From: Rhodospirillales bacterium
GTDB lineage: Bacteria; Pseudomonadota; Alphaproteobacteria; Rhodospirillales; Magnetospirillaceae
Assembly (NCBI GenBank): GCA_019455065.1
Contig: JACFNC010000017.1
Span: forward strand, 1 to 64,000
Direction: 5' to 3'
Length of the DNA: 64,000 nucleotides
Shown: positions 16,582 through 60,377 of the stretch, piece by piece
Position numbering within the stretch: position 1 is the stretch's first letter
Layout of the letters: every line of letters starts with the position of its first letter
The notes under the pieces: model-generated
Told to the model about the DNA's origin: nothing
The model's input: only the letters and a program-made list of their open reading frames with translations
Database searches by the model: none
Made by a program: the position numbers and the translations under genes

Positions 16582-16817
16582 GCTCAGTGCGGTCGGTGTG
16601 GGGCGATGGCGGAGGGTGCCAGAATCCGGGATCAAACTCAACGAGGCCCGCGAGCGTGCCCGACTGACTTTGCGAAAGCATTCACCATTCACTCGAACGT
16701 CAATAGATCTTCAAACCATTATCGATTACTTAATTTCCGCTTGGGATGGTAGCGCCGGAAAATTCTAGCGAGCTCACCCATTCATGTGATATCGGTGGCT
16801 CGCTGTTGGGGGGATGC

Positions 16818-17594
16818 GTGCAGACGAATTTTCTCGAAGTTACCGAGCTCGCAGGCGACAAGGTAACTAAAGAACAGGTCATCCGCCATTGTAATAGATA
16901 TTACTGGGCGGGGCACTATTGCCGTGGCAAGGATGTCATCGAGGCCGCTTGTGGCACTGGCCAGGGGCTCGAATATTTGCAGTCCATTTCACGGACTCTG
17001 CGCGGGGGTGACTACTCCGAACCAATAGTCGGCATCGCTCGGCAGCATTACGGGGATTGCCTTTCGGTAGAGCGCTTTGACGCCCAAGCAATGCCGGTGG
17101 ACAACCAGTCTGCCGATCTGGTGATTCTGTTCGAGGCCATCTACTATCTTCCAGACGTTAAGAAATTCGTTGGCGAGTGCGCACGCATTTTGCGACCTGG
17201 CGGGATGGTGTTGATCTGCAGCGCCAACAAGGACCTTTATGATTTCAACCCCAGCCCCCACACCTACAAGTATTACGGGGTCGTCGAACTCGGCGCGCTG
17301 GTAGCGCGCCACGGGTTTACAGCGGAGTTCTTCGGCGACACCCCGGTCGCCTCCGCCGGTAGCTGGGAAAAGGCGCTCCGTTGGGCCAAGGCCACCGCCG
17401 TGCGTCTAGGCCTGATGCCCAGGACGATGTCCGGCAAGAAACTGCTCAAATGGCTCGTCTTCGGTGGCCTGGTGGACATGCCCCGCGAGATCGACGCGGC
17501 CACCGCCCCCGTGGTCACGCCCAAGCCCATCCCGAGCGACCAACCCTACAACGACTACAAGGTCGTCTATTGCGCGGCGCGGCTGCCCGCCTAA
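16818..17594 (+). CDS. SAM-dependent methyltransferase, polysaccharide locus (arm 1)
   Basis: This class I methyltransferase has motif I VIEAACGTGQGLEYL, then DLVILFEAIYYLPD and LRPGGMVLICSANKD. The GTG at 16818 is chosen: it follows a run of G residues and aligns the N-terminus (VQTNFLEVTELAGDKV) residue for residue with the ATG start of its paralogue at 38859 (MSTDFLDVTELAGDEV). An ATG at 16746 gives a 24-residue extension absent from the paralogue. The target is unknown; methylation of a nucleotide sugar or glycan is likely from context. It is the first gene of the forward unit, and its composition is lower in GC than its paralogue's. Confidence 0.8.
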   Translation: MQTNFLEVTELAGDKVTKEQVIRHCNRYYWAGHYCRGKDVIEAACGTGQGLEYLQSISRTLRGGDYSEPIVGIARQHYGDCLSVERFDAQAMPVDNQSADLVILFEAIYYLPDVKKFVGECARILRPGGMVLICSANKDLYDFNPSPHTYKYYGVVELGALVARHGFTAEFFGDTPVASAGSWEKALRWAKATAVRLGLMPRTMSGKKLLKWLVFGGLVDMPREIDAATAPVVTPKPIPSDQPYNDYKVVYCAARLPA

Positions 17595-18532: not shown

Positions 18533-20422
18533 ATGTGCGGAATCGCCGGCATCATCGTGCGCGACCCGAAGCCGCCAGCCGAGCTCGCGGCCCGCGCCAC
18601 TGCCATGGGCGAGGCGCTCGCCCACCGCGGCCCTGACGGCGCCGGGGTATGGGCGGATGCGGAGGGGACCGCCGCCCTCGCCCACCGGCGGCTGGCGATT
18701 ATCGACCTCACCGCCGACGGCGCCCAGCCCATGTCCCGTCCCGGCAGTTGCCCCACCCTCGTCTACAACGGCGAAATCTATAACTATGTCGAACTGCGCC
18801 AATCCTTGGAGCAGGAGGGACTCCGCTTTCAGGGGCGGTCGGATTCCGAGGTCCTATTGGGTGCTCTGGAGCATTGGGGCATCGCCGAGACCCTGCCGCG
18901 CCTGGCCGGGATGTTCGCCTTTGGGCTTTGGGATTCGCGGGCCCGCACGCTGACCTTGGCACGCGACCGGGCGGGAAAGAAGCCCCTCTACATTCACAAC
19001 GACGGCAAGCGGCTTATCTTCGCATCCGAACTGCGGGCCCTGGAGAGGGTGGGTCGCTTCCCGATCCGGCATGAAGCGATTCGCCACTACCTGAGCCTAG
19101 GGTTCATCCCGGCGCCCCAGACCATATTCGAGGACGTCGAGGAGGTTCCGCCCGGTTATTGGCTACGGTTCGGTCCGGATCTCAGGGAGGAGCGTCATGC
19201 CTATTGGACGCTGCCCGGCGGGACGGTGGTTGCTTCCACTTTCGCCGAGGCGGTCGAGGAGAGCGAGCATCGACTAAGCTTGGCGGTTCGGCAACGGCTG
19301 CGCGCCGATGTCCCGGTGGGCATCTTCTTGTCCGGAGGGATCGACAGCGGCCTCATCACCGCCCTGGCGGCCCAAGCGACCGACACGCCGGTCAAGACCT
19401 TCACGGTCGGGTTCACCGCGGCCCAGGAGGTTGATGAGTCGCTGCTGGCCGGGCTCGTGGCGGCGCGCTACGGAACACAACACCATTCCATCACTCTCAA
19501 TCCGGATATCGAGGAACTTCTGCCGACAGTGGCCAAAGCCTATGGCGAACCCATGGGAGACGCGTCGGCGTTGCCGACCTTCGTCGTGACCCGCGAAGCG
19601 AGTCGACATGTGAAGGTCGTGCTGAACGGCGAGGGGGCCGATGAATTGTTCGCCGGCTATCGGCGTCACCGGGCAATCAAGCTTCTGGCGAAGGCCCGCG
19701 CCCCGCTCAACCTGATACCCGGCACGGCTTGGCGAGCGCTTGCCCGCCTTCTTCCCACGCCCGCCGCCGCCCGCACGCCCTACGCGTTCCTCCACCGCTT
19801 CGTCCGGGGGATCGATCAGGCGCCGATGGACCGTTATCTCGCCTGGACAGCCGACACCTTCACCGAGGCGGAGCAACAATCGTTGTGGGCGGGGGGCGCT
19901 CCAGGCAGCGAAACCTCACGCATGCTCGATGCGGCCTTTCCCGGCCTTTCCGACCTCGGCGCCGTGCGTCAGTTCATGGCCCTCGATTTCCGCTTGGCAA
20001 TGGCCGACTGCCTCCTGCCGAAGCTCGACATCGCGACCATGGCCCACGGCCTGGAAGCGCGCTGCCCTTTCCTCGACCACCGCTTGGTGGATTGGGTGTC
20101 CACCCTTGATCCGGGCATTGTGCTTCGCGGACGCACCAACAAACCGATACTTCGAGAGTTGGCGCGGCGGCACCTGCCGCAGGCGGTGGCGGGTGCGCCC
20201 AAACGCGGATTCGAGATTCCGTTGGTCCGTTGGATGACGCGTGACCTGCATTCCATGGTGCAGGATAACTGCCGAAGCCGGGGCGGGCTCCTGGCCGAGG
20301 TTTTCGATCCATCCGCCTTGAACGCCTTTCTCGACCGACGTTGGCAAATGGACGACGCACGATGGGCGAAACGGGCTTGGCTGCTCTTGATGCTTGCGCT
20401 ATGGAACGAGGGCCGTGCATGA
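18533..20422 (+). CDS. asnB: Asparagine synthetase B-type amidotransferase (arm 1)
   Basis: This 629-residue enzyme has an N-terminal class II glutaminase domain with catalytic Cys2 (MCGIAGIIV) and a C-terminal synthetase domain with the PP-loop LSGGIDSGLITALAA. It would take ammonia from glutamine to amidate a carboxylate after adenylation. In polysaccharide loci such proteins are thought to amidate uronic acids or amino-acid substituents, so aspartate need not be the substrate. The gene starts 3 bp after the sulfotransferase stop and overlaps the next gene by 4 bp. A paralogue is at 36800-38683. Confidence 0.88.
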   Translation: MCGIAGIIVRDPKPPAELAARATAMGEALAHRGPDGAGVWADAEGTAALAHRRLAIIDLTADGAQPMSRPGSCPTLVYNGEIYNYVELRQSLEQEGLRFQGRSDSEVLLGALEHWGIAETLPRLAGMFAFGLWDSRARTLTLARDRAGKKPLYIHNDGKRLIFASELRALERVGRFPIRHEAIRHYLSLGFIPAPQTIFEDVEEVPPGYWLRFGPDLREERHAYWTLPGGTVVASTFAEAVEESEHRLSLAVRQRLRADVPVGIFLSGGIDSGLITALAAQATDTPVKTFTVGFTAAQEVDESLLAGLVAARYGTQHHSITLNPDIEELLPTVAKAYGEPMGDASALPTFVVTREASRHVKVVLNGEGADELFAGYRRHRAIKLLAKARAPLNLIPGTAWRALARLLPTPAAARTPYAFLHRFVRGIDQAPMDRYLAWTADTFTEAEQQSLWAGGAPGSETSRMLDAAFPGLSDLGAVRQFMALDFRLAMADCLLPKLDIATMAHGLEARCPFLDHRLVDWVSTLDPGIVLRGRTNKPILRELARRHLPQAVAGAPKRGFEIPLVRWMTRDLHSMVQDNCRSRGGLLAEVFDPSALNAFLDRRWQMDDARWAKRAWLLLMLALWNEGRA

Positions 20423-21689: not shown

Positions 21690-22577
21690 ATGACGATCCC
21701 TATTCCGCCCAACGCTCCGATACCTGCCGAAGCTCTGGCCAGCCCGTCGCCTCTGCACGACCTGTTGCGCCTCATCTGGTATCGCAAATGGTCGATTGGC
21801 CTGATCACCGCCTGCTGCGGGGGGCTGGCCATCGCCATGGCGTACTCCATGACGCCCTATTATCGAGCGAGCGTTCTGCTCGATCCGGTGCTGAAGATCG
21901 ACCAGAGCGCCGGCGGTGGCTGGCAGGGAGCCAGCCCGTTGATCGGCTTGTCGCTGGGCAAGGGCGACGAAGCCACCGAGACTAGCGTTGCGGTCCTGAC
22001 GTCGCGGGAATTCACCGAGTCTTTCCTCCGCGAAAAGCATCTTTTGCCGGTGTTGTTTCCCAAGCGCTGGGACGGCGAAGCCGGGAGGTGGAAGACAATA
22101 GACGGCAAATCCAGCGAACCGACCGCCTGGGAAGCCTATTCCTATTTCGACGAATCCGTGAGGAAGGTGGTCAAAAACGCCAATGACCACCTGTACCGCC
22201 TGCAGATCGAGTGGAAGGACCCGGCGGTGGCCGCCGAATGGGCCAACGACCTGGTCATTCGGTTGAATGCGCTGATGCGCGAGCAGGCGATCTCCGAGGG
22301 ACAGAAACACCTCGACAGCTTGCTCGACCTCTTGGCAACCACCCCGGACGTCGCCGCCAAGGAAACGATCTCGCGGCTGACCGAAGGCCCCATTCTCAAA
22401 ATCACGATGGCCAAGACGCGCGAGCAGTACGCCTTCGAGATCGTCGACGCCGCCATTCCGGCGAAGGATCCGATACGGCCAAAGAAATTCATGATGGCGT
22501 TCCTCGGGCTGCTTGTCGGGGCCTTCCTCGGTGGTCTGCAGGCCGTGTTGCGGGCCCCGCCCCCACGGCGAGGCTAG
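21690..22577 (+). CDS. Wzz-like polysaccharide co-polymerase
   Basis: This 295-residue protein has the two-helix Wzz layout: first membrane segment about residues 36-54 (SIGLITACCGGLAIAMAYSM) and second at about 272-290 (FMMAFLGLLVGAFLGGL), preceded by the Pro-rich PAKDPIRPKK. The region between is periplasmic and helical. Wzz proteins set chain length of Wzy-polymerised glycans. An aggaggg ribosome site precedes the ATG. It ends 1 bp from the convergent methyltransferase stop codon, marking the meeting point of the two transcription units. Confidence 0.82.
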   Translation: MTIPIPPNAPIPAEALASPSPLHDLLRLIWYRKWSIGLITACCGGLAIAMAYSMTPYYRASVLLDPVLKIDQSAGGGWQGASPLIGLSLGKGDEATETSVAVLTSREFTESFLREKHLLPVLFPKRWDGEAGRWKTIDGKSSEPTAWEAYSYFDESVRKVVKNANDHLYRLQIEWKDPAVAAEWANDLVIRLNALMREQAISEGQKHLDSLLDLLATTPDVAAKETISRLTEGPILKITMAKTREQYAFEIVDAAIPAKDPIRPKKFMMAFLGLLVGAFLGGLQAVLRAPPPRRG

Positions 22578-22578
22578 A

Positions 22579-23604
22579 CTAGCAGCCGGCGCGGCCCGCC
22601 GTTTCAGTTGGCTTGGTGGCGCTCACGAACACCCCCGCGGCCAAGAGATCTTCCAGCGGCAGACCGCGATAGGGCGGTGCCAGCCGCGGCCGTATCCGCT
22701 CCACGAGCGCTACTTGTGCGTCGCTGTAGTCCTGGCCCGCCCGTAACTGCCGGCTGTAAGGATTGATGTTGTCCTTGACGCCCACGGTCTTGGTGTAGGC
22801 GTAGGACGCGTCATAGCCGCGGGCCGCGAATTGGGCCCGATAGTAGTCGATCAGCCGCCGGTTGGGCCGCCCGGTATGTGAACTCATGGCGCCGTAGACG
22901 GCGTCGCAGAAGGTCAGGAAGATCAAAGGATTATGGCCCCCCCGGCTGAACATACCGTGGTCGCTGAGGTCGATCTTGTGGGCCATGCGACCTCCCGGGA
23001 CCAACAGCCGGTCCATCACCGCCATGCCCGTGTCAGGATCGTAGAGATGGGCAAGAACGGCATATGAAAGGATAATGTCGAAACGTTCGCCCGGCAGGGT
23101 GGCCTCGGCGTCCTCGATTCCGATTCCGTGCACGTAGCTCAGGCGGTCGGCGTCAAACACCGGTTCCGCGCCACTCAGGTCGACGGCGGCATCAAAACGA
23201 CGGCGTTGCTCGGCATCCTCCAGGCTATCCCGCAAGGCCCGATAGACCTGCAACTGCTGGGCCGGATCCCGACGCGAATAGAAGCGATCCAGGCAGACGA
23301 CCCGGCGTGCACCCCTAGCCAGTAGACACAGCGCGACCCCCAGATTGTCGCCCGGGCCGAGCTCGAGGATGGTGGCGTCATGAAGGCGCTCGTCGTCGAT
23401 ACCGCCGAACGTGGAATAGTCGTCCAACACGCGACGGATATAGGCAAGGCTTGCCGCCGCATCGAGATCGCGGTGGGTTGCGCCTTGCTCGGAATCGTGT
23501 TGGCCCGCCGCAAAACGGCGCTTCGCCCGCGTGTTCTCCAACAGAAAGTAAGCCACGCAGAACAGTTGCGAGCGTTTTGCCAGGCGGTTCAGTGCGTCCC
23601 TCAT
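22579..23604 (-). CDS. SAM-dependent methyltransferase (end of reverse unit)
   Basis: This 341-residue class I methyltransferase has the SAM motif ATILELGPGDNLGVALCLLARGA and a later PGGRMAHKIDLSDHG stretch; the FDIILSYAVLAHLYD segment fills motif II. Long methyltransferases with a 'LELGPGDSLG' motif are common in capsule and LPS loci and usually methylate sugars. The start ATG overlaps the stop codon of the upstream triple glycosyltransferase gene (ATGA). It is the last gene of the reverse unit. Confidence 0.82.
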   Translation of the reverse strand: MRDALNRLAKRSQLFCVAYFLLENTRAKRRFAAGQHDSEQGATHRDLDAAASLAYIRRVLDDYSTFGGIDDERLHDATILELGPGDNLGVALCLLARGARRVVCLDRFYSRRDPAQQLQVYRALRDSLEDAEQRRRFDAAVDLSGAEPVFDADRLSYVHGIGIEDAEATLPGERFDIILSYAVLAHLYDPDTGMAVMDRLLVPGGRMAHKIDLSDHGMFSRGGHNPLIFLTFCDAVYGAMSSHTGRPNRRLIDYYRAQFAARGYDASYAYTKTVGVKDNINPYSRQLRAGQDYSDAQVALVERIRPRLAPPYRGLPLEDLLAAGVFVSATKPTETAGRAGC

Positions 23605-26600
23605 TGCCAGCGTCGCTCCTTCAGAATTTCGTCATAGACAGATTCCAATTTCCGTACGGTGGCGCGGATGTCATGCGCCGCCAGGACGTCTTCCCGGGCC
23701 GCGTAGCCGAGAGCGGCGCGGCTCGCCGCGTCCGACACCAAGGTCCGTAGAGCCTCCGCCAGCGGGCCCACCTCGCCGGCGGGAACCAGCTTGCCGGTCA
23801 CTCCGTCCCTAACCAGATCGGGAACGCCGCCGACCGAAGTGGCGACGACCGCCCGGCCAAGGGCCATAGCTTCCATGACCGACCGTGGTACGCCCTCGCT
23901 GAGCGACGGCAGCACGAAGATGTCGGCCATCGCGACGATGCGTAACGCATCCGTCCGATAGCCGGTGAAACGCACCGCATCACGCAGGTCATGCCGCTCG
24001 ATCAAGGTCTCCAGCCGATCCCGGAATTGCCGGTATTCCGGATTGCACTCGTCACCGACGATGTAGAGGCGGGTGGCGGGGGCCGTGACACGGACTGCCG
24101 CCAGGGCCTCGACCAGCAAATCCACGCCCTTCAACGGCGATACTTGGCCGACATAGACGATGTTGCAGGTGGACGCGTCCCAGCCCAGCTCTTGCTTCAG
24201 GGCCGCTTCGGCGGCCGACGACGGCGCCTCCAGGGTGTCGAGGTCAATGCCGTTCGGCACGATGCGAATCTTGCGTGTGTGTCTTTGGACGAGACGAGGG
24301 TAGCGACGATCGCGGTTGATCGGCGATTGAAAGAGGACCCGGTCGGCCAGCCGGTAGCCCACCCGATCCAGCAGCGGGTTGTCGAGATGCCCCTTCACAT
24401 ACCAAATCACCGGAATGCCGGCGAGCTTCGCGGCCGGCCCCGCAATCAGCAGAGCCCGCAGATTGTGGCATTGCAGTACATCGACCTCGCCCTCGAGCAG
24501 CGTTCGGCGCAGCGACCAGGCGTAGCGCAACGCCGCCAGGGCGCTGCTGAGGCGGCCGATCAGACCCTGGCCAAGAAGGGCGCCGCCGTAGCGGCCGAGG
24601 CGTTCGGGCGGGGAAACCACTTGCGTGGCGATTCCCATGTCCCGCAGGTCATCGAGGAAGGCGGCGTCGCGCTGAGCGATGAACAGCGGCCGGTGACGCC
24701 GGCGATCCAGATGTTTGAGCATCCCCAAGGTGAAGCGCAGATTGCCGTAGGGATTGTCGAACACATAGGGTTCGAAGACGGCTATGTGGATCGGCGGCCG
24801 GTTTGACGCCGGCGTCCCGTTCAGCACCGCGTCGTAGAGCGCTTCGCTGTTGCGCACCAGGGCGGCAATCGAAAACTCGCTACGAATGCGCTCGCGCCCC
24901 GCAGCGCCCAAGGCCCGCGCCTGGTGGCGGTCGGCGAGCAGGCCGGTAACGGCGTCGGCCAGCCCCCGGGCGTCGCCGGGGGGGACCAGCAGGCCGGTCT
25001 GTCGGTGGGTGATCAGCTCGTTGCAGCCCTCGGTGTCGAAGGAGACGCAAGGGAGGCCGCACGCCATGGCCTCCATCACGGCGTTGGGAAGCCCCTCGTA
25101 GTGGGCGGCGTGTACGTAGAGGTCGAGGGTATCGAGGAAGCGCGGGACATCGTCGAGCCAGCCATGCACGATCACGTGGTGATCGAGGCCCAGTTCGCGA
25201 ATCCGCGCCTCGATCTTGGCGCGCAACGGGCCGTCGCCGGCCAAGTGAAGTTCGCAAGCGAAATTGGCGTCGACGAGATGGCGGAGCGCTTTGAGAAGGG
25301 TTTCGTGATCCTTGGCAGGGACCATGCCGCCGACGAACCCGATGCGCGGCCGGCCGGATGGGGACGAGCCGCGCGCAAGCGGAAAGGCGTCGGTGTCGAT
25401 GCCGTTGCCCACCACCGACACCTTGCGCCTTGGCAGCAGCCGGTGGCTGACATAGTAGCGTGCGCCGTGCCCGGAATTGGCGATCATCAGATCGGTGAAG
25501 GGCGCCAGCGCGCGTTCGATCAGACGCTTGCCGCGCGACTTGATGCGCGGGGCCGTGCGCTCGCCGATGACGATATGGGGAACCCGGGCCAGCACCGCCG
25601 CCAGCCGTCCCACATAGTTCGGCGACTGCCCGATGGTGTGCACGAGGGCCGGCTTGAGTTCGCGCAGGCGGCGGCGCGTTTCGAGAACCGCCCACAGACG
25701 GCCACGAGCGTAGGGAACGATGACGACGGGAATGCCGAACGACCGAAACCGATCACCCCACGGCCCGTCCTCGAAGACGATCACGGCGGGACTGAAGCGG
25801 CGGCGGTCGAGGCCTTCGAGCAGCATCAGCAACTGCCTCTCGGCCCCGCCCACGACCAGGGCAGCAATATTGAACACGATGGTGCGGGGGGCTGACGCGT
25901 CGGGCCGCCCTTCCTCGTCGCTCCAGGGAAAGGTGGCAACGCCTCGGGACACCCGTGCCCCCCGCCACGGCCACGGGAGGCGGCCGAGCAGCGACCAGCG
26001 CGGCCGCGCCGTTGCCACGTCGATGACTTCGAAACCGCCAGCCCGGCCGTAGGTGTGGCAACCAGCGACGCCCGGAATCGCTTGCGCCGAAAGCATGCTT
26101 AAGGGCTCTTCACGGTAGCGGGTGGGTGACCATTCGACGACCCGATGAAAGACGACCGCCTCGCCATAGCGCCGGCCGCATAGCTGGGCCGGCCGGATCC
26201 ATTCCCCGGCGGCGGTCTGGAACAGCGGCCCCGCCATGCGGGCGCGCCACGGATCGACGACGATGGGATTGGCCGGGTGCGGACGCCACGGCCCCATCGG
26301 GATGTCCGCCTGGAACAGATGCAGGGCGTCATCGCCGTCGCTGCCGGCGGCGCGAAGGACGACGAACATCCACATCGCGCCATCCTTCTCCACCAGCGTG
26401 GCATCGGCGGCATCCACTCCCGACAACAGCTCCGCCACCGGCCGCCAGCGGTCGGGGACCTGCTCGCATTCATAGAGCTCGACCTTTCCGGCCCGCCGCG
26501 ATTCGGGCACCATCCACCAGCGCCCGTCCCAGGCGAAGACCTGCGGGTAGGACAGGTGCCAGGGTCGCTCCAGCACGCGCACCGGGGCCAGCGCCCGGCC

Positions 26601-27542
26601 CTCCGCGTCGAGTTCGCGGACGCTGACGACGCCCCGGCCGAGAGTGCGGATCCATTCCTCGCAGACCAGGAAGAGGCGGTCGTCGGCCGCCCACAGGAAG
26701 GGGTCGGCAAGATAGCTGCCGTCGCCGGTGGGCACGCGCACCCAGCCGCCCCGGTCGCCGACCCGGCCATCCGGCGAGGCGGGGCCGGCGCGCCGCAGCG
26801 CCACATACCACTCGTCCTCAAAAAAGGCGCTGCGCAGTACCCGATGCACCAGGCGGGCGGCCATGCCGATAGCATGGGAAGCGAGCGTCGGCGCCCCCAC
26901 GGCCGGAACGGCGGCGGAAGGCGCGGCCGGCTCCGGGGTCCAGGTTATGGCGCCCCCATGACCGCGGCTCCAGGCGGCGACGCGATGAACGGTGACCTCC
27001 GCCGCCATCCACAGCAGGCGCGCCGCGCCGAGGCGGGCCGAATAGGGGCTGGCCTTGACGTAAAACCGATGCGCCGCCGGTCCCTCCGGGCCGGTCCGCA
27101 GGATGCGCCCGCCCAGGCGTTCGCCATCGACCGGGCTATAGGGCTCGTCGAGCATCAGGCGCCAGCAGGGCCGGTCCGCCGGCCCGCCGTCCGACCGCGC
27201 GGTGAGGTCGAGCACGAGATCGGCCTCACCCGGCGACGCCTCGGGCAGCGAATGCCAGCCGGGCGGAAAGACCCCCGGCGACAGCGGCTCGCGGGCCGTT
27301 CGCACCGCGGCCAACAGGCGGCGTTCGAGCGGCGCGATCAGCGCCGCGATCAGCCGCGTCCGCCGGTCGTCGGCCAGGTCCGGCGGGCCGACCCAGCGGG
27401 TTCCGGGCGCGGCGGCACAGCGCATCAGGCGGACGCCGTCGAGGCCCAGCAGGCGCTCGAGCAGGGACGCCAGCCACCACGGCGGCGGCGCGGCGGGCGC
27501 CACGACGCCGATGCGGCCGACCGCTTCTTCCTGGGCCGCCAT
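23601..27542 (-). CDS. Triple-module protein: GINT1-like domain plus two GT4 glycosyltransferases
   Basis: This 1313-residue protein appears to be three units in one chain. Residues 1-220 are poorly conserved, formyltransferase-like. Residues 245-545 resemble the N-terminal beta-propeller domain of glucosamine inositolphosphorylceramide transferases (ADPFLWAADDRLFLVCEEW, then ELYECEQVPDRW and GVDAADATLVEKDG). Residues 553-905 are a GT4 domain (GGAERQLLMLLEGL; YEGLPNAVMEAMACGLPCVS). Residues 918-1313 are a second GT4 (SEGVPRSVMEAMALGRAVVA). It would add at least two sugars to the repeat unit. The frame is open throughout without frameshift, and its start overlaps the polymerase stop by 1 bp (TGATG). 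Confidence 0.82.
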   Translation of the reverse strand: MAAQEEAVGRIGVVAPAAPPPWWLASLLERLLGLDGVRLMRCAAAPGTRWVGPPDLADDRRTRLIAALIAPLERRLLAAVRTAREPLSPGVFPPGWHSLPEASPGEADLVLDLTARSDGGPADRPCWRLMLDEPYSPVDGERLGGRILRTGPEGPAAHRFYVKASPYSARLGAARLLWMAAEVTVHRVAAWSRGHGGAITWTPEPAAPSAAVPAVGAPTLASHAIGMAARLVHRVLRSAFFEDEWYVALRRAGPASPDGRVGDRGGWVRVPTGDGSYLADPFLWAADDRLFLVCEEWIRTLGRGVVSVRELDAEGRALAPVRVLERPWHLSYPQVFAWDGRWWMVPESRRAGKVELYECEQVPDRWRPVAELLSGVDAADATLVEKDGAMWMFVVLRAAGSDGDDALHLFQADIPMGPWRPHPANPIVVDPWRARMAGPLFQTAAGEWIRPAQLCGRRYGEAVVFHRVVEWSPTRYREEPLSMLSAQAIPGVAGCHTYGRAGGFEVIDVATARPRWSLLGRLPWPWRGARVSRGVATFPWSDEEGRPDASAPRTIVFNIAALVVGGAERQLLMLLEGLDRRRFSPAVIVFEDGPWGDRFRSFGIPVVIVPYARGRLWAVLETRRRLRELKPALVHTIGQSPNYVGRLAAVLARVPHIVIGERTAPRIKSRGKRLIERALAPFTDLMIANSGHGARYYVSHRLLPRRKVSVVGNGIDTDAFPLARGSSPSGRPRIGFVGGMVPAKDHETLLKALRHLVDANFACELHLAGDGPLRAKIEARIRELGLDHHVIVHGWLDDVPRFLDTLDLYVHAAHYEGLPNAVMEAMACGLPCVSFDTEGCNELITHRQTGLLVPPGDARGLADAVTGLLADRHQARALGAAGRERIRSEFSIAALVRNSEALYDAVLNGTPASNRPPIHIAVFEPYVFDNPYGNLRFTLGMLKHLDRRRHRPLFIAQRDAAFLDDLRDMGIATQVVSPPERLGRYGGALLGQGLIGRLSSALAALRYAWSLRRTLLEGEVDVLQCHNLRALLIAGPAAKLAGIPVIWYVKGHLDNPLLDRVGYRLADRVLFQSPINRDRRYPRLVQRHTRKIRIVPNGIDLDTLEAPSSAAEAALKQELGWDASTCNIVYVGQVSPLKGVDLLVEALAAVRVTAPATRLYIVGDECNPEYRQFRDRLETLIERHDLRDAVRFTGYRTDALRIVAMADIFVLPSLSEGVPRSVMEAMALGRAVVATSVGGVPDLVRDGVTGKLVPAGEVGPLAEALRTLVSDAASRAALGYAAREDVLAAHDIRATVRKLESVYDEILKERRWQ

Positions 27543-29041
27543 CAGCGCATGACCGCCGCCGGCCGCATCGATTCCAGCCGCCGCAACAGGAGCACGATCA
27601 GAATGAAGGGGAGGATCTTGAGATCGGCATAGACGAAGGCTTGGGACAGACCGCTTTTAAAGGAAAACGGCACGAAATACAGAAGATAAAAAACGTAAAG
27701 TACTATGAAATATCTCGTTACACCCGGCCGAAAAGCCATCCTGGAAAGGACCGTATTCATCCATCCAAAAAAGAGCATTGCGATGACAATTCCATACACT
27801 CCGAAATTGAGGAACAGCTCCGCAAACATACTAAACCCACGGGCAACAGTGCCGGCCTGGTTCTGATCATATCCGTAGAATAACAACGTAAATTTAGCTG
27901 AAGCCCAGAGATGGTCGTATTTTTCAGGAAAAAAAACAGTCGGTATCCTAAGAATACCATGCGTCAAGAAACTCTTCCCCATCCAGTATTCTATTTGAGA
28001 TGGAACCTTTTGCAGGACCATGAAATACGTAATGGAAGTATCGAACACATTTGCCATAAAAAACAAAACCCTATCCACATCCAGTTCTTTATTTCCACCC
28101 CCTGTCCGGTAGATCCCATAACCGATTGCCAATACAAACAGCGCCACTCCCCCGAGTAACATTCCGCCCACTTGCAGCACCCTGCGGGCGGCGCTGACGG
28201 GTATGGCCGATTCCGATCGGCCGCGTCGCAGAACAGCTTGCGCGACCAGGACGCCAACCACCGACATGACAAGAACCAGCCGGGAGCCGCGGATCGAATT
28301 GGACAGGACCACCAAATAAAGGATCGATGCGCCGGAGAGTGAGAAGATGCGCCGGTTCGGATCGCCGATAAAATAGACCAGCACGGCAATATTCATTAAG
28401 AAAGCGAGTTCGAGAAACACTCCAAAACCACCGCTGGTTATGTCCTCTCCCCCCCGGCTGCGCTCCTCCGGGCGTCCAAGGAAGGCATCGATCGGCATGC
28501 CCGAACGCACAAACAGCGCCGCCCAGGCGAGTATCGCCACAACACCGAGGATCAACACCGCGCGGTCTGTAACCCAGGGGGTCAGCAAGTCCCGGCCCTC
28601 GCCCGAAGGACGCACCGGGGACCGCGTGCCGATCCACATGCCGACGGCATAGGTCGCCAGCCCGAAGAGGCCATAGAGGCTGCCGATGCGGGCCGCTTGC
28701 CAATTCTCGACAAAAAAGTCGCCTTCCCCCACCCAAGCCGTCCCTGAAACATAGAGGGCCGGATTGACCACTTGGTAGATCAAGAAAAAGAAAAGAAAAA
28801 TGAAGTTGGCGTCGGTAACGCCCCGGCTGAAAGCCATGAGAATGAGGCAAGCCCAAGCCAGGGTCACCATGGCGAGCGCCGCGCCGAGCAGTTCCGACTG
28901 GCTGGGGATCAACCAGTAAGCCGCGAGCATGCCGGCAGGCCCAAGCCAAAGCAGTACATAGTAGCCGATGAGCGTCGGCCGCGACGCCGTTCGAAGGCGG
29001 TGGGACAAGCCCGTCCCTGCTCCAGGCTCGATCGGCGCCAT
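27542..29041 (-). CDS. Wzy-like O-antigen polymerase
   Basis: This 499-residue protein is almost wholly hydrophobic, with about 11-12 membrane helices and a larger periplasmic loop between residues 175 and 200. Sequence conservation in Wzy is low, so the call rests on topology and context: it lies between glycosyltransferase and deacetylase genes in a locus with Wzx and Wzz partners. The 27650-28150 stretch has lower GC than neighbouring genes, as polymerase genes often do. Wzy joins lipid-linked repeat units in the periplasm. Confidence 0.75.
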   Translation of the reverse strand: MAPIEPGAGTGLSHRLRTASRPTLIGYYVLLWLGPAGMLAAYWLIPSQSELLGAALAMVTLAWACLILMAFSRGVTDANFIFLFFFLIYQVVNPALYVSGTAWVGEGDFFVENWQAARIGSLYGLFGLATYAVGMWIGTRSPVRPSGEGRDLLTPWVTDRAVLILGVVAILAWAALFVRSGMPIDAFLGRPEERSRGGEDITSGGFGVFLELAFLMNIAVLVYFIGDPNRRIFSLSGASILYLVVLSNSIRGSRLVLVMSVVGVLVAQAVLRRGRSESAIPVSAARRVLQVGGMLLGGVALFVLAIGYGIYRTGGGNKELDVDRVLFFMANVFDTSITYFMVLQKVPSQIEYWMGKSFLTHGILRIPTVFFPEKYDHLWASAKFTLLFYGYDQNQAGTVARGFSMFAELFLNFGVYGIVIAMLFFGWMNTVLSRMAFRPGVTRYFIVLYVFYLLYFVPFSFKSGLSQAFVYADLKILPFILIVLLLRRLESMRPAAVMR

Positions 29042-29064: not shown

Positions 29065-30054
29065 TTAGCAGGCGATCTTCATGCCCGATTCCCGGGCGAA
29101 ATCAGTGGTAAACTCGCCCAGCGTGGCCCCTTGGAATTTTCCCTGAGCTGCGGAAAACACCGCTTCCAGGTCATCATAGAGGCGCTCGATGCTCTGGGCC
29201 GTGGGAAAGGTCGGGCTACCGCCGGGCATGAATTCCGACGAGTGCAGCATGAATTCGACGTAAGGCCGCCCCTGTAGGGCGGCCGTTTCGATCAGCCTGA
29301 TCATGGCCTTGCGATTGCGCCCGATCGGCCGCAGCCAATGCACCGGCGGCGCAGCCCTGTGGAGCACCCGTCCGGGCAGCGACGAGCGCCCAAGGGCCTG
29401 GCGCAGCGGGTCGAGCCACGCGCCGCCGTTCCTGGCGATGGTCATCGGCACTTCGAGCAGCGGGCTGTCGCCGGGGCGGCCGATATCGTCGAGGTCCATC
29501 CAGTAGGGACGGTCCGGGAAATCGCGATAGTCGCTTCCGCCCCCACCGCCGGGCGCTCCGGGCAGGTGACGCCAACTGACATGGGGGGTGACCGAGCAAT
29601 CGATCCGGTAGCCAAACTCCACCAGCAGGCGGGCATAACGGCCGTCCATCGCCCAGCGCCCGGCGCGGTGGCTGATCATCTTGACCCCGAAGGTGTCTTC
29701 GAGAAGTCCCGTGATGAAGGCGATCTTGTCGCGCATCACCGCATCCGGATAGTCGATCAGGTAGGGATGATGAGCGTTGTCGTCCGCCGTCAGGGGCTCG
29801 ATCGGGGGCGAGTTCCAGGCGTGCAGGTGCATGCCGACCTCGCCGGTCTTCCGCGCCAGCACGTCGCGGGCGAAGTCGACGTAGGCCGGCGATGTCGCCA
29901 TCTCGTAGTTGGTCAGATAGGTGGGCCTCTGCCCGAACCGCTCGCAAAGCGCCTGGAAACGTGGCAGGAAGCGGGCGTTCTCGCAGGTCATTCGAGGGTT
30001 GCGCGCCCACAGATTGTCGCCCTCGACGTCAATGGTGATTAGAAAAGCCGGCAA
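29065..30054 (-). CDS. Polysaccharide deacetylase (NodB-like)
   Basis: This 329-residue protein fits carbohydrate esterase family 4-like deacetylases: FLITIDVEGDNLW near the start supplies the metal/catalytic Asp region, GEVGMHLHAWNSPP a His motif, and SHRAGRWAMD a further motif. It would remove acetyl groups from glycan amino sugars. I place the start at TTG 30054 (LPAFLITID), preceded by ggaaggggc; the longer frame to 30120 would overlap the upstream gene by 61 bp with unlikely sequence. It immediately follows the FemAB-like gene. Confidence 0.75.
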   Translation of the reverse strand: MPAFLITIDVEGDNLWARNPRMTCENARFLPRFQALCERFGQRPTYLTNYEMATSPAYVDFARDVLARKTGEVGMHLHAWNSPPIEPLTADDNAHHPYLIDYPDAVMRDKIAFITGLLEDTFGVKMISHRAGRWAMDGRYARLLVEFGYRIDCSVTPHVSWRHLPGAPGGGGGSDYRDFPDRPYWMDLDDIGRPGDSPLLEVPMTIARNGGAWLDPLRQALGRSSLPGRVLHRAAPPVHWLRPIGRNRKAMIRLIETAALQGRPYVEFMLHSSEFMPGGSPTFPTAQSIERLYDDLEAVFSAAQGKFQGATLGEFTTDFARESGMKIAC

Positions 30055-30059
30055 AGACG

Positions 30060-30797
30060 TCAGCCCCTTCCCACGACCGCCGCGCGCGACAGAAACCCGC
30101 GCGCAAGATAGAGCGGCCACGAAAGATAATCATATTCCTCGACGATCGACCCACCGAAACTCGCTTTGAATTGGCTTATCCGCTCCAAAGCAGGATCGTC
30201 GGTCATCTTGGAATAGCCACCGAGATCGTAGTGCCTAAGTCCCAGCCGTTGGAAATGCAGCATGTCTTGAAAATGTAAGAACCTATTTGCCCAGCCTATA
30301 ACCGGACCGGCGACGGTATCGTCCGTCCGAATTGCCGAATACAGTAGCCGGACCCGCGAAACCGCCTTGTCCATAACATAGGCATGCATCGCCAGGGCAT
30401 GTCCTTCGAATTGGGCACAGGTAATCGGCAAGTCGTTCCCGAACGACAGGAGGTGCTCGGGCCGAAGGGCTGGCAGTTTACGTACCGCCGCAAAAATATT
30501 GAAGAAGGACCGGAACGTCTCGGTATCGACCGCATCCGAGCAAGTTACCCCTTCCTTCTCAGCCCGACGGATTTCGTTCCGCGTCGTCTTCCGGCAGCCG
30601 GCAAGCAGGACGTCGCCGGTTTGCTCAAGGTTGACCAAGATCGTAAAACGTGGCTCGCACACGAAACCCAGCACCGGTTGCCCCCGACGGCATTGCATGA
30701 CATGCAGAAAACCGAGTGCCCGGTGCGGTCTGGGGGAACTGCCGAACCATTCAGTGCAGTAACTCAATGGACCCCTTGAAACGGTCGTCCGAATCAT
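30060..30797 (-). CDS. FemAB-like/GNAT acyltransferase
   Basis: This 245-residue protein resembles FemAB-related GNAT acyltransferases: TTRNEIRRAEKEGVTC is the 'R-x-x-I-R+A-x-K-x-G' motif of the family, and DLGGYSKMTDDPALERISQFKASFGG is the typical C-terminal segment. These enzymes transfer amino-acyl or acyl groups in cell-wall or exopolysaccharide pathways. In a glycan locus it probably decorates a sugar amine with an acyl or aminoacyl group. Start is the ATG at 30797. Confidence 0.78.
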   Translation of the reverse strand: MIRTTVSRGPLSYCTEWFGSSPRPHRALGFLHVMQCRRGQPVLGFVCEPRFTILVNLEQTGDVLLAGCRKTTRNEIRRAEKEGVTCSDAVDTETFRSFFNIFAAVRKLPALRPEHLLSFGNDLPITCAQFEGHALAMHAYVMDKAVSRVRLLYSAIRTDDTVAGPVIGWANRFLHFQDMLHFQRLGLRHYDLGGYSKMTDDPALERISQFKASFGGSIVEEYDYLSWPLYLARGFLSRAAVVGRG

Positions 30798-30838: not shown

Positions 30839-31705
30839 TTACGCCGTCGCTGGTTTTTGGGTGGAGACGATGACGATCTTGAAGGTTGTGCAGAGCGCCT
30901 CCAACATCCGCTTGCCTCCCGGGATTTGGTTCAGCGCTGACAAACGAGAGCCCCGCAGGCGAGGGTGGTTGAGGACTTCGAGCTCAACCTGTTGTCCGGC
31001 GTCGATGAATGCATTCTGATAAGCAGTAACCGGCCTGTAGATCGTCTCCCTTACGCTGTAATCGTAATAAACGTTCACGCGCTGCCAGAAATCCATTGCG
31101 GCGACGGCCTTCCATCCCGGCTCCTTCCCCGCGAGCACCGCGGCGGCCACCATGCACCACCGCAGCCGGTTCTTAGGCAGCCAATGAACCAGCGGCATGT
31201 CGAGATGCCGCTCGACCGGACTCCACCTCCCGATGAACCAATGATAGCCCCAGCCACCCGCCGTCGTCATCCGCGTTATGTCACCGACGGCGGCGGGCAG
31301 ATCCAAAACATGCTCAAAGACACTACTGGAATAGACGAGATGAAAGAAACCATCGTCGAATCCTGGCCCTCCCGCGTTCTTTCCGATCCGCAGCAGGCCT
31401 GGCTCATAGAGGCCAGCTTCCCGCAGCCCCGGTTCTGCGTAGCGTATCCATTGTTCGTCGACCTCCAACCCATAGGCTTGCCAACCCTGCCGTCGCAACA
31501 GCGCGACCGACTGCCCCCGCCCGCAGCCGAAATCAAGGACCCGGAACTCATGTCTCGGCACGCCGGCTTCAGCGCGTTTCCGTTCTAAGAAGTCCTGTAG
31601 GCCAGGATCGACGCGGTAGGAATCAATATCGCGCAAGGTGAGCGGCTGATATTTGTCATCAACGTAGCAATCGCCTTCATCATCCACCATGCTCAGACCA
31701 GTCAA
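30839..31705 (-). CDS. SAM-dependent methyltransferase (paralogue of 35867 gene)
   Basis: This 288-residue class I methyltransferase has FRVLDFGCGRGQSVALLRRQGW, VYSSSVFEHVLDL and a distinctive GGWGYHWFIGRWSPVE region. It is strongly similar along its length to the protein at 35867-36712, so the pair arose by duplication. The start is a TTG at 31705, which has GGAG seven bases upstream and overlaps the preceding stop codon (TTGA); an ATG at 31690 lacks a ribosome site. The substrate is unknown. Confidence 0.82.
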   Translation of the reverse strand: MTGLSMVDDEGDCYVDDKYQPLTLRDIDSYRVDPGLQDFLERKRAEAGVPRHEFRVLDFGCGRGQSVALLRRQGWQAYGLEVDEQWIRYAEPGLREAGLYEPGLLRIGKNAGGPGFDDGFFHLVYSSSVFEHVLDLPAAVGDITRMTTAGGWGYHWFIGRWSPVERHLDMPLVHWLPKNRLRWCMVAAAVLAGKEPGWKAVAAMDFWQRVNVYYDYSVRETIYRPVTAYQNAFIDAGQQVELEVLNHPRLRGSRLSALNQIPGGKRMLEALCTTFKIVIVSTQKPATA

Positions 31706-32706
31706 CCTGCAACTCCCACGGTGTGAATTCCGAAAATGGCATGCATATCGTGAGCCTCGACGTCAACCTCCCACAACATCTTACCGTTTGCCAGGTCGTA
31801 GGCGGCGATCCGCGCGGGGTTCGGATATATTTCAACCTCAGGATTGGCAAACCGTTTCAGCCAGGCGACCTTTTCGCGAAATTTCGTCTTTCGCACCTTT
31901 GTGAATCCCACCACCACGCGCTCGCCGTCCAACACCGTCAGACCTCGACACCACCCGAGCGGTCCGTCCTTGCCAGAGATCGCATTCAGGTCCACGCGGC
32001 GCACCATCTCCCGCGTCGAGCAATCGAAAACGACAATGTTGCCGTCCACCGTCGTGAAATAGACCCTGCCCCCGTGGACGACGCCGTCATGGACATAGTT
32101 GACGAGGATCTCCAGGTTGGGCTGACTGCGGTCCGTCAGACACAGGGCGTCACGCTGCCAGGCCCTCGTCGCCCAAAGATCGTCGCCGACGAAGAAGGCG
32201 TAATTGGGATGGGACTTGTGCGGCTTTGTGCTCAACACCTTGCGATAATCGGTATCGGGTGAGAACCGTGACCACAACGGGTCTTCATTTACGCTATAGG
32301 CGTCAATGACATCACCCTGTTCGGTCATCACGACAACCATATCCAGGCCGGTGCTCACAACGACGAGAGCGCCGTCCGGCCGCACGGCCACATGGTGAAC
32401 GTCATTGAACCAGGGGTGGCTGAGATAGCCGACCTGCTCGAAGTCCGGCAGCGAATAGAAGACCACCTCGGTCGATGTCGGAACGAACAACCGATTGCCG
32501 ACCACCGTGCCCGCCTTGAAACAGACCGCGGCATTCTCGTCATCGGGCCTGGCCTCGGGCGGAGTGACGTACTTCACCTTGCGCTCCACCCTGCCGGTTT
32601 CCGGGTGCACGCAAAGAATCACTGCGTGATCATATAGGTGCCAGGACGGCCGTTTCTTGTCATCGCGCTGGTGGCCGCCCAGCACATAATAACCATCCGT
32701 CGACAT
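31702..32706 (-). CDS. Beta-propeller-like protein of polysaccharide locus, unknown
   Basis: This 334-residue protein has repeated strand-rich segments such as DGALVVVSTGLDMVVVM, GRVYFTTVDGNIVVFDC and GERVVVGFTKV, spaced as in WD-like or NHL-like propellers. No signal peptide is seen, so it is probably cytoplasmic. I do not recognise a specific family. It is coupled to the methyltransferase downstream by a 4-bp overlap. It might act as a glycan-modifying enzyme or scaffold, but there is no catalytic motif that I can name. Confidence 0.6.
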   Translation of the reverse strand: MSTDGYYVLGGHQRDDKKRPSWHLYDHAVILCVHPETGRVERKVKYVTPPEARPDDENAAVCFKAGTVVGNRLFVPTSTEVVFYSLPDFEQVGYLSHPWFNDVHHVAVRPDGALVVVSTGLDMVVVMTEQGDVIDAYSVNEDPLWSRFSPDTDYRKVLSTKPHKSHPNYAFFVGDDLWATRAWQRDALCLTDRSQPNLEILVNYVHDGVVHGGRVYFTTVDGNIVVFDCSTREMVRRVDLNAISGKDGPLGWCRGLTVLDGERVVVGFTKVRKTKFREKVAWLKRFANPEVEIYPNPARIAAYDLANGKMLWEVDVEAHDMHAIFGIHTVGVAG

Positions 32707-32775: not shown

Positions 32776-34185
32776 TTATGCTCGACCACCCGTCGCAGCC
32801 GATCCTTCGGCGGGAACGTCGCCATCAGAACCCGTGCCCTCGCTTCTGGCCGGAACAGTCGGCACGACCGTGTTCGACTTGCGCAAGAGAGCGCCAAACA
32901 CCGTCGGCACCAATCCCAATTTGGAGTACACCGCCGCTCCCAAGGCTCCCGCCCTCAACACGGCCGTCGCCAGGGTTGCAAGAGCCGCCCCGGTGGTTCC
33001 CCACGCCCCCACCAGGATGATGCTGAGAAGGGTGTTGACAGTCGCCGTCCCGACTGTGATCCCGGCGAACAGGGTCTGTTGACCAGTCATGGTCATGACG
33101 GCGCCCACGACCCCGGTGCCGGCCGCGATCAGATGACCGACAGCCAGTATGATCAGCAGATGGAAACCCGCTTGGTATTCAAGGCCATAGAAGCCCAGCA
33201 GGGTGCGGCCGAACAACACCATTATGGCCACCATCGGCAGGGTCAACACGGTCACCAGAAGGGCGCCACGGGTCAGCAATGCCTGCATGGCGGCTCGCTC
33301 GCCCCGGGCATGATGGGCGGCAAAAACGGGGGAAAGGGTGGTGACCGCGACGCCCTGAAAAAAGCCGAGCAGACTGGAGAGAGCGACGGCCGTCGCGTAG
33401 ATGCCGGCCTCGCGCGGCGGGGCCAGCGAGCCAAGGACCAGCATGTCGGCTCGCGCCGTCACCTCTGACGCCGCGTTGACCACGAGGAGAGGAAAAGCCA
33501 CTCGCATCCAGCCGGCGGAGTCATGACGAGGTTGATGCGCCAGCCGTTCCCGCGGCAACGCCCTCGCCAACAGCGCCGCCCCGAGCAGGATGCCGCAGCT
33601 CGTCGCCAGCGCAATCCATCCCAATGCCCACTCGGCATCGGCCTTCACGCCAAAAACCCCGACTACAGCCAGCCCGGCCAATACAACCAGGCCCCCTTTC
33701 GGCACCAGCACGTCATTGATCAGCGCTCGGACGGGCTGCTGAAACCCGAAGAATGCGTCGCGTATCCATTGGCCAACCACCAGCAGCGCCAGCAGCAAGC
33801 CGCTCAACGCCAACGTGCCGGGCGTCCAACTCGCCGGCAACCCCGGAAGGGCCTTGGCAAGCAGCGCGACGAGCGCGGCGACGGCGACCGCCACGGCAAG
33901 CTGCAGCAACAGTGTTCGTCGAAGCAGTCCCCGCAGCAATCCCCACGATTGCTCAGCCACATAAGTGGCGACGAAGCGAATGATCACGCTGCCCAACCCC
34001 AGCCTGACCACCATCACCCCGAGGAACACCCAGTTCAATGCCAGCGCATAGCGGCCGAACTCCTCGGCCCCCAACGCCCGCGCCACCAGCACCTGGGCCA
34101 GGAACGCCAGCCCCATCCCGCTGACGTTGCAGAGCGTCACCCATGAGGCGCGTCCCAGAAGGCCACCACGCAGCCGGTCGATCAT
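32776..34185 (-). CDS. Wzx-like polysaccharide flippase
   Basis: This 469-residue protein has 12-14 membrane helices and the MATE/MOP-superfamily Wzx start ASWVTLCNVSGMGLAFLAQVLVARALGAEEFGRYALALNWV. Wzx flips lipid-linked oligosaccharide across the inner membrane. The ATG at 34185 (MIDRLRGGLLGR), preceded by ggaaggcgcc, is preferred to a GTG at 34251. The C-terminus has a ~30-residue Ser/Thr/Gly-rich tail beyond the last helix. With the polymerase and Wzz-like genes it completes a Wzx/Wzy-type pathway. Confidence 0.88.
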   Translation of the reverse strand: MIDRLRGGLLGRASWVTLCNVSGMGLAFLAQVLVARALGAEEFGRYALALNWVFLGVMVVRLGLGSVIIRFVATYVAEQSWGLLRGLLRRTLLLQLAVAVAVAALVALLAKALPGLPASWTPGTLALSGLLLALLVVGQWIRDAFFGFQQPVRALINDVLVPKGGLVVLAGLAVVGVFGVKADAEWALGWIALATSCGILLGAALLARALPRERLAHQPRHDSAGWMRVAFPLLVVNAASEVTARADMLVLGSLAPPREAGIYATAVALSSLLGFFQGVAVTTLSPVFAAHHARGERAAMQALLTRGALLVTVLTLPMVAIMVLFGRTLLGFYGLEYQAGFHLLIILAVGHLIAAGTGVVGAVMTMTGQQTLFAGITVGTATVNTLLSIILVGAWGTTGAALATLATAVLRAGALGAAVYSKLGLVPTVFGALLRKSNTVVPTVPARSEGTGSDGDVPAEGSAATGGRA

Positions 34186-34406
34186 CGGTGCGGCGCCTTC
34201 CGCACCAGTCGTAATGCAGAGATGCTTTGGAGGAATATCATACCTAGCCACAGTACTTTGGCAATTATTTGCAAAAAAGCCAAACGGTCAAACCTCACGA
34301 AATAAAATGTCTGGCGACTTGGCTAGACATGTCTGCCACGGGAGGACCAAGGCTTGGAGGCTAGGGGTGGTTGCCGCGCTTATTTTCTTACCTTCATTGA
34401 GCCGCT

Positions 34407-35015
34407 CTATCCCCTTACAGTGCTCCAAAAGCTGACAGGATGTTCGAGCCCCCATCTCGAGCCTGGCTCCCACCGATCAAAACGCTCCAATTGGTCAAAT
34501 TGCGCAAAAACATCTTCATGCACTGGGTTTACATAGCAGATCCGAATAACCCGCGCCGTCCCCTTCCATGAGGAAACTAAGTCGCGCAAAACCTGTTGGA
34601 GTGTTTCTCGACCGAAGGGGTTGTACATATAGAGAATAGTCGTATGCGAAAAATCAAATGCTTGAGCTTTCCCACATATGATTCGAATTGGAGTCTTGCC
34701 CTTTCTGAGTTTGCGGGCGTTCCTCTGAGCAATGGCGCATAGTGCCTCTGACATTTCCACGCCGACGACCTCGTGCATGGGCATTCGGGCGGCGCAAGCC
34801 AACACGCGTCCCATGCCACAACCGAGATCGACAAATACATCGTTGGGGGTCGGTTGCACCCGCCGAAGGACGGAAACGATTGCGGGATAGGAAGTCATCG
34901 AATAGGGATACTGGTCCGCCTCGTCAAACGTCACAAACCCACGGGTAGTGACCCCCAGCCTTGCCTCCCAATAATAGTTTTGAAGTCGTTGAAGCTGCCG
35001 GGCTAGCGAAACCAT
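34407..35015 (-). CDS. SAM-dependent methyltransferase
   Basis: This 202-residue class I methyltransferase has VFVDLGCGMGRVLACAARMP as motif I and a YMYNPFG sequence at the motif IV position. It belongs to a small-methyltransferase group common in glycan loci. Its ATG lies immediately after the previous gene's stop codon at 35016 with no gap, indicating coupling. A 221-bp AT-richer gap separates it from the flippase gene. Confidence 0.78.
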   Translation of the reverse strand: MVSLARQLQRLQNYYWEARLGVTTRGFVTFDEADQYPYSMTSYPAIVSVLRRVQPTPNDVFVDLGCGMGRVLACAARMPMHEVVGVEMSEALCAIAQRNARKLRKGKTPIRIICGKAQAFDFSHTTILYMYNPFGRETLQQVLRDLVSSWKGTARVIRICYVNPVHEDVFAQFDQLERFDRWEPGSRWGLEHPVSFWSTVRG

Positions 35016-36712: not shown

Positions 36713-36799
36713 GATTAGCGCCGCCCCTCGCTTACCCCCAAGAGTCCCGAAACTATCGGCCACCAGGCGCTCTTGCCTGACATCGCCTTCCACGCCCGG

Positions 36800-53787: not shown

Positions 53788-53821
53788 GGTTTGCCTCCTG
53801 TTGGCTCACTAGATGGGCGCC

Positions 53822-53864
53822 ACCCTAACGACGCTCCCGCCCGCGGGCTGTGAAGCGGTCCACA
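53822..53864 (-). promoter_or_regulatory. Class II Crp/Fnr-type promoter (OmpA-family gene)
   Basis: On the minus strand the site TGTGGACCGCTTCACA (53864-53849) is followed after 21 bp by TAGGGT (53827-53822), 34 bp before the ATG. On the plus strand the site reads TGTGA-N6-CCACA, one base off the E. coli Crp consensus. Confidence 0.75.
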
Positions 53865-54027
53865 GCGCCGGCCGAATCTTGCGGAGGATTGCCGGCCCCG
53901 GCGGGCGGGCGCATGTCAAGGGAGGTTCCTCCAAGTCGTCCTCGGCCTCGCCCCGGGGGCCTTGGATTGCAGGGTCAAGCCCGGCAATGACGCGCGGGAC
54001 TGATTCACGGGCCAAGCGGAGGGCGGC

Positions 54028-59614: not shown

Positions 59615-59653
59615 GGCCTTCCACGGCCGCCGGGCGGGGCATAGGCTGGGGCG

Positions 59654-60289: not shown

Positions 60290-60377
60290 CAGCGCGCGGC
60301 GCCCGTGGATGCGCGGATCAAGTCCGCGCATGACGGCCGACCATCACGGAGGGGGGCCCGCCGCCCCCCGGCGGCGG

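What the first reader, a model, noticed from the sequence alone, without database searches (positions are those of the whole stretch)
23601..27542. Triple-module glycan enzyme joining a GINT1-like domain with two GT4 domains
One 1313-residue open frame holds a degenerate N-terminal part, a domain like that of plant glucosamine inositolphosphorylceramide transferases, and two complete GT4 domains with separate E-x7-E regions. The frame has no break, and it overlaps neighbours at both ends, so it is a genuine fusion. It suggests that two consecutive transfers happen in one polypeptide.
Basis: partly seen in the sequence, partly recalled or inferred. Interest (0 to 1): 0.62.

Follow-up and report, generated by a model that had tools for sequence, protein, structure and literature searches.

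The report
Four-part sugar-polymer enzyme fusion
A bacterium has joined two ordinary sugar-transferring enzymes to a helper protein, usually a separate gene, that is widespread in bacterial slime-polymer gene clusters and of unknown function; the joined gene looks real and hints at what the helper works with, but its activity is untested.

Summary
One unbroken 1313-residue frame (23601-27542, minus strand) overlaps both neighbours in a Wzx/Wzy-type exopolysaccharide cluster of an alphaproteobacterium. It has four folded parts, not three: a degenerate formyltransferase fold (7-212), a five-bladed propeller of the GH43/GH62/GH130 kind (245-515, Pfam GINT1_N) and two GT4 domains, each with E-x7-E. 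The 'GINT1' label misleads: the shared part is the N-terminal extension of plant GINT1, not its GT64 transferase. The formyltransferase-propeller pair is a common stand-alone bacterial protein; of 146 other distinct family members examined none is joined to GT4 domains, one is joined to a GT28-type domain. In a Rhodoferax MAG the propeller gene is followed directly by two GT4 genes. Tandem GT4-GT4 frames occur elsewhere in this order, so the novelty is the joining. All 24 propeller columns invariant in 55 aligned members are intact. Both GT4 domains lack an Arg that most relatives have (G739, Q1133). Best reading: a fused assembly-line protein adding two successive sugars to a lipid-linked repeat, with the propeller gripping or modifying that glycan. 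Activity is inferred, not shown.

The parts
23601..27542 (-). Whole fused gene, 1313 aa
26907..27524 (-). Residues 7-212: degenerate formyltransferase-fold domain, without the His motif (HHGD) seen in 11 of 104 relatives with a long N-terminal part
   Evidence: AlphaFold2 model pLDDT 80.7; Foldseek best 6v2t E 1.2e-4; VIA-align Z 10.8, all 50 rows shown formyltransferase-fold enzymes; motif count
26811..26906 (-). Residues 213-244: helical connector (helix 217-240)
25998..26810 (-). Residues 245-515: five-bladed beta-propeller; Pfam GINT1_N matches residues 276-483
   Evidence: Pfam; model pLDDT mostly above 90; Foldseek; VIA-align Z 22.1, rmsd 2.8 over 237 residues to a GH130 phosphorylase
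25887..25997 (-). Residues 516-552: linker, predicted disordered from residue 526
   Evidence: pLDDT below 50 for 526-551
24819..25886 (-). Residues 553-908: first GT4 domain
   Evidence: Pfam; NCBIfam TIGR03088 stretch 554-907, protein total 311 bits, below its cut-off of 409
25071..25097 (-). E-x7-E motif of the first GT4 (residues 816-824)
   Evidence: the two Glu conserved in 87 and 89 of 92 relatives
24786..24818 (-). Residues 909-919: short linker between the GT4 domains
   Evidence: domain bounds; no in-frame start codon from residue 907 to 926
23619..24785 (-). Residues 920-1308: second GT4 domain
   Evidence: Pfam; PDB relatives 4xso E 2.7e-21 and 3c4q E 4.6e-19
23871..23897 (-). E-x7-E motif of the second GT4 (residues 1216-1224)
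   Evidence: the two Glu conserved in 81 and 80 of 83 relatives
27542..29041 (-). Upstream neighbour, Wzy-like polymerase (context)
   Evidence: PF14296 E 5.3e-9
32776..34251 (-). Wzx-like flippase (context)
   Evidence: PF01943 E 1.9e-21
21690..22577 (+). Wzz-like chain-length protein (context)
   Evidence: PF02706 E 3.3e-8
22579..23604 (-). Downstream neighbour, methyltransferase-like, overlaps by 4 bases (context)

Best explanation
A cytoplasmic assembly-line protein for the lipid-linked repeat unit of a Wzx/Wzy-type exopolysaccharide. The two GT4 domains add two successive sugars to the growing undecaprenyl-linked oligosaccharide. The propeller, whose pocket is fully conserved, holds or modifies the acceptor glycan. 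The formyltransferase-like domain is a non-catalytic relic or scaffold. The gene arose when a stand-alone formyltransferase-fold/propeller gene was joined to two GT4 genes. Shown: one frame, four modules, folds, conserved motifs, cluster context, separate genes elsewhere. Inferred: activity of both GT4s, order of action, role of the propeller, cellular location, lipid carrier.
For: Domains and folds. Both GT4s keep E-x7-E and the Lys common in relatives. Wzy, Wzx and Wzz genes lie nearby. The propeller is fused to a different, GT28-type transferase domain in another genome (L165), and in L117 the propeller gene is followed by two GT4 genes in tandem, so it keeps company with transferases more than once. 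52 of 80 genome-contig loci hold a GT4-like ORF in the flank held (no random-region control was run). 24 columns of the propeller are invariant in 55 of 55 aligned members, the window included.
Against: No activity or product is known. Both GT4s lack the Arg that 65 of 92 and 59 of 83 relatives have, so one or both could be weak or altered. The GT4 genes next to the propeller gene in L117, L043, L065 and L086 are only 25-35% identical to the fused ones and are not shown to be orthologues. No close relative with the same fusion was found to prove that it is maintained.
Confidence: 0.5

Rival explanations
1. The propeller is itself catalytic: a phosphorylase- or transferase-type enzyme, like the GH130 and GT108 propellers, so the protein carries three active centres.
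For: Best VIA-align rows are GH130 phosphorylases; a mannoside synthase is among the first ten. An invariant residue lies at or next to the inner strand of every blade (D280, H329/S331, D380, R435, H496), also in a more GINT1-like subfamily. hhalign against GH43 pairs D280 and D380 with GH43 Asp positions. GT108 shows that a five-bladed propeller can be a glycosyltransferase (PMC8476585 and PMC8950772, passages).
Against: A shared fold shows no function; the leading GH130, GH62 and GH43 rows differ little in Z. The GH43 hhalign match is weak (probability 10.6, E 0.0029) and the GH130 one is nil. That R435 stands where GH43 has its acid is inferred from spacing and a recalled GH43 triad, not from superposed coordinates.
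Confidence: 0.25
2. The propeller and the N-terminal domain are inactive binding or scaffold parts that only position the GT4 domains.
For: The N-terminal domain lacks the HHGD motif kept by 11 of 104 relatives with a long N-terminal part and is less conserved than the propeller (mean column conservation 0.33 against 0.54).
Against: Strict invariance of the propeller pocket across distant phyla and its existence as a separate gene argue against a mere scaffold.
Confidence: 0.2
3. The fusion is an artefact of an indel in the assembly: two or three adjacent overlapping genes.
For: Relatives are separate genes. A stop lies in the +1 frame at residue 907, at the end of the first GT4, and an in-frame GTG at 906.
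Against: A three-gene origin needs two independent indels. At the first linker the other frames stay open to residues 572 and 596, inside the GT4. Apart from GTG 906 no in-frame start precedes the second GT4's first strand. GC3 is high throughout. Other tandem GT4 frames exist in the order.
Confidence: 0.05

Closest known systems
Stand-alone bacterial GINT1_N proteins (PF24793), about 480-610 aa with an N-terminal formyltransferase-like part or about 300 aa without
   Same: Same module as residues 1-515 (or its propeller), 23-36% identical in the 54 relatives aligned; the six plasmid cases read lie beside polysaccharide-type genes in all six
   Different: End a median of 8 residues after the propeller; none of 146 carries GT4 domains
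Plant GINT1 (GT64)
   Same: Shares the GINT1_N domain by Pfam's definition
   Different: Its transferase is GT64; no GT64 match here, two GT4 instead
Tandem GT4-GT4 proteins of the same order (L213, L218, L219)
   Same: Two GT4 domains in one frame of 833-876 aa
   Different: No match to the window's first 550 residues
GINT1_N plus GT28-type fusion in genome G590 (L165, 701 aa)
   Same: Propeller fused in front of a GT28-type transferase domain
   Different: One GT28-type domain instead of two GT4; no formyltransferase-like part (GINT1_N starts at residue 8)
GH43/GH62/GH130 and GT108 five-bladed propellers
   Same: Fold of residues 245-515 (GT108 from papers)
   Different: Sequence similarity only marginal: 49 of 55 members match PF04616 at E up to 0.5, best 1.9e-7; the window 0.037, below the cut-off

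Membership tests
Pfam PF24793 GINT1_N | Profile score over the curated cut-off | tested here: met
   97.9 bits against 27
Plant GINT1-type transferase | GT64 catalytic domain | tested here: not met
   No GT64 or exostosin family among the 7 Pfam matches up to E 0.01
GT4 glycosyltransferases | Two profile-supported GT4 domains with E-x7-E | tested here: met
GT4 glycosyltransferases | Basic Arg/Lys pair in the C-terminal domain (role recalled) | tested here: inconclusive
   Lys kept (K744, K1138); Arg site is G739 and Q1133, while 65 of 92 and 59 of 83 relatives have Arg
GH43-type glycosidases | Five-bladed propeller fold | tested here: met
GH43-type glycosidases | Pfam PF04616 score over cut-off | tested here: not met
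   13.8 bits against 32.2
GH43-type glycosidases | Asp-Asp-Glu triad (recalled) | tested here: inconclusive
   hhalign with 9 GH43 proteins pairs D280 and D380 with GH43 Asp columns; the match ends before the Glu
GH130 / GT108 | Catalytic Asp and phosphate-binding residues in register | not testable with these tools
   No coordinates of the alignment were available; profile comparison with 5 GH130 proteins gave nothing
Formyltransferases (PF00551) | Fold | tested here: met
   relative L015 matches PF00551 at E 0.00099, below cut-off
Formyltransferases (PF00551) | Sequence profile and His motif in the window protein | tested here: not met
   No PF00551 match for the window; no HHGD; hhalign with 22 formyltransferases no hit

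The most novel reading that the evidence does not exclude
The GINT1_N propeller is an unrecognised, very widespread bacterial carbohydrate-active enzyme of polysaccharide assembly working by non-hydrolytic transfer or phosphorolysis, and this fusion makes a three-centre enzyme that builds or edits a repeat unit in one polypeptide. It would also give plant GINT1 a second active site.
Probability: 0.2. Interest if true: 0.72.

Novelty: new variant of a known kind. Interest (0 to 1): 0.4.

Why it matters
GINT1_N proteins occur in hundreds of bacterial genomes (421 relatives in one scan), and my searches of the held paper library found nothing on the Pfam accession or on the full GINT name together with exopolysaccharide. 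A natural fusion to two transferases suggests which step the domain belongs to and gives one protein in which the pocket and both transferase sites can be mutated separately. It also corrects an annotation trap: 'glucosamine inositolphosphorylceramide transferase' is misleading for bacterial proteins that only share the propeller.

Tried and rejected
Rejected: that residues 245-545 are a GINT-type transferase (no GT64 match). Rejected: that the two GT4s are a recent internal duplication; they are 30% identical to each other (98-102 bits), and the first scores higher (up to 149 bits) and the second as high or higher (up to 117 bits) with unrelated loci. Rejected: that the GT4 genes beside the propeller genes in L117, L043, L065 and L086 are clear orthologues (25-35% identity). 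Led nowhere: profile comparison of the N-terminal part with 22 formyltransferases and of the propeller with 5 GH130 proteins; PDB sequence search with A3 (best E 0.032); PF24793 in papers (0 papers); the GINT1 paper itself is not held; Rfam and tRNA scans empty. Papers: PMC8950772, PMC8476585, PMC7980081 and PMC9113257, passages only; PMC11288761, only reference-list passages came up; all others search listings only.

Limits: the genome-contig scan kept the best 80 of 421 relatives. Genome-search loci carry about 1500 bases of flank, and not all matches became loci; for the rest I saw only the open-frame lengths in the table (all matches apart from the window's: 292-959 aa), and the 959-aa one was fetched as L164 and has no GT4 match. 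Identical stretches were counted once in the 146 (158 ORFs, 147 distinct with the window's). Some ORFs of 750-960 aa look overlong at the N-terminus in GC-rich DNA; the five of them given to Pfam (L040, L044, L065, L069, L110) and L164 showed only PF24793 and weak PF04616. The 11 long-frame loci were chosen by frame length; 3 of 11 showed two GT4 domains, which is no frequency.

Full report
What is there. The frame 23601-27542 on the minus strand encodes 1313 residues without an internal stop. The window is 66.9% G+C; GC3 is high in every block of the frame and the two other frames hold 25 and 16 stops. The gene overlaps its upstream neighbour as TGATG and its downstream neighbour as ATGA. Neighbours include a Wzy-like polymerase, a Wzx-like flippase, a Wzz-like protein, several methyltransferases, two asparagine synthases, a FemAB-like protein and a sulfotransferase, so this is a polysaccharide cluster. 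The class is Alphaproteobacteria: a genome marked 'same class' (G377, locus L022) shares its sequence with contig VWVY01000007.1, titled Rhizobiales bacterium SYSU XM002 (locus L092).

Anatomy. Pfam gives GINT1_N at 276-483 and two GT4 regions. An AlphaFold2 model of residues 1-551 on an alignment of 55 members (A3) is confident in the propeller (pLDDT mostly above 90) and disordered after 525. Foldseek and VIA-align place residues 245-515 among GH43, GH117, GH62 and GH130 propellers; best VIA-align row Z 22.1, rmsd 2.8, 237 residues, a GH130 phosphorylase, with GH62 and GH43 rows within 1-3 units. Predicted alone, residues 1-212 (pLDDT 80.7) match formyltransferases: Foldseek best 6v2t E 1.2e-4, and all 50 VIA-align rows shown, Z 9.7-10.8, are formyltransferase-fold enzymes. 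By sequence the window domain has no such match; relative L015 does weakly (E 0.00099), and 11 of 104 relatives with a long N-terminal part keep an HHGD motif that the window lacks.

The pocket. In 55 aligned members, 24 propeller columns are identical in all 55, the window included. D280, D380 and H496 lie in the inner strands of blades I, III and V, H329/S331 at that of blade II and R435 next to that of blade IV; the blade assignment is mine, from the DSSP strand list. The same pocket residues are invariant in 9 proteins that include a more GINT1-like subfamily. This argues that the domain binds or turns over something specific. A weak hhalign match to GH43 pairs D280 and D380 with GH43 Asp columns (probability 10.6, E 0.0029). 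By spacing, R435 would stand where GH43 has its acid Glu; that last step uses a recalled triad and is inference.

The GT4 domains. Both keep both Glu of E-x7-E and the Lys conserved in 82 of 92 and 76 of 83 relatives. Both lack the Arg found in 65 of 92 and 59 of 83. They are 30% identical to each other, and the first is closer to other GT4s than to its partner, so they are not a recent duplication.

Distribution. GINT1_N occurs in 2 of 55 genomes of the family, 21 of 317 of the order (20 over the cut-off), 22 of 385 of the class and 49 of 398 of the phylum (48 over the cut-off); samples overlap. A scan of named genomes gave 421 relatives, of which 80 were kept, with titles from Proteobacteria, Chloroflexi, Planctomycetes, Acidobacteria, Cyanobacteria and others. 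tblastn found 72 plasmid records and one phage-collection record. Among 146 other distinct ORFs none has a GT4 domain; the chain ends a median of 8 residues after the propeller; 104 have 150 or more residues before it and 34 fewer than 60. One, L122/L165, continues for 430 residues and carries a GT28-type C-terminal domain. In the 80 named loci, 52 hold a GT4-like ORF in the held flank, 4 have one directly downstream on the same strand, 13 directly upstream. L117 has propeller, GT4, GT4 in a row. Tandem GT4 frames without the propeller are found in the same order (L213, L218, L219; 3 of 11 long-frame loci chosen).

Interpretation. The fusion is genuine with high probability, and rare in what I examined. 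The architecture ties the propeller to the transfer step of repeat-unit assembly. I give 0.5 to two successive transfers with the propeller engaging the same glycan, 0.25 to a catalytic propeller, 0.2 to a passive scaffold and 0.05 to an assembly artefact. The GT64 activity of plant GINT1 does not carry over: GINT belongs to GT64 and is about twice as long as the related GMT with an additional domain (PMC9113257, passage).

Novelty. No new fold or mechanism is shown: it is a new combination of known domains, built on a widespread and little-studied family. Searches for PF24793, and for the full GINT name together with exopolysaccharide, found no paper in the held library.

Noticed in passing
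L165:1378-3483 (genome G590): GINT1_N propeller fused to a GT28-type C-terminal domain in one 701-aa frame, another transferase fusion of the same domain.
   Followed up: partly
window 31702-32706 (-): 334-aa protein with weak, sub-cut-off hits to beta-propeller families (PF03478, PF13360); possibly a second propeller in the cluster.
   Followed up: no
window 18533-20422 (+) and 36800-38683 (-): Two full asparagine synthase genes within one polysaccharide cluster.
   Followed up: no
window 16746-17594, 22579-23604, 30839-31705, 34407-35015, 35016-35960, 35867-36793: Six methyltransferase-like genes around the cluster, perhaps a heavily methylated glycan.
   Followed up: no
window 29065-30120 (-): 351-aa protein without a Pfam match up to E 0.01 next to Wzy; one similar ORF lies beside a GINT1_N gene in L044.
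   Followed up: no
L034, L035, L039: The propeller gene and a convergent GT4 gene overlap by about 85-88 bases at their 3' ends in three plasmids.
   Followed up: no
window 57143-60331 (-) and 53809-55950 (-): Long frames of 1062 and 713 aa without any Pfam match at E 1e-5; not checked for being real genes, as long opposite-strand frames overlap them.
   Followed up: no
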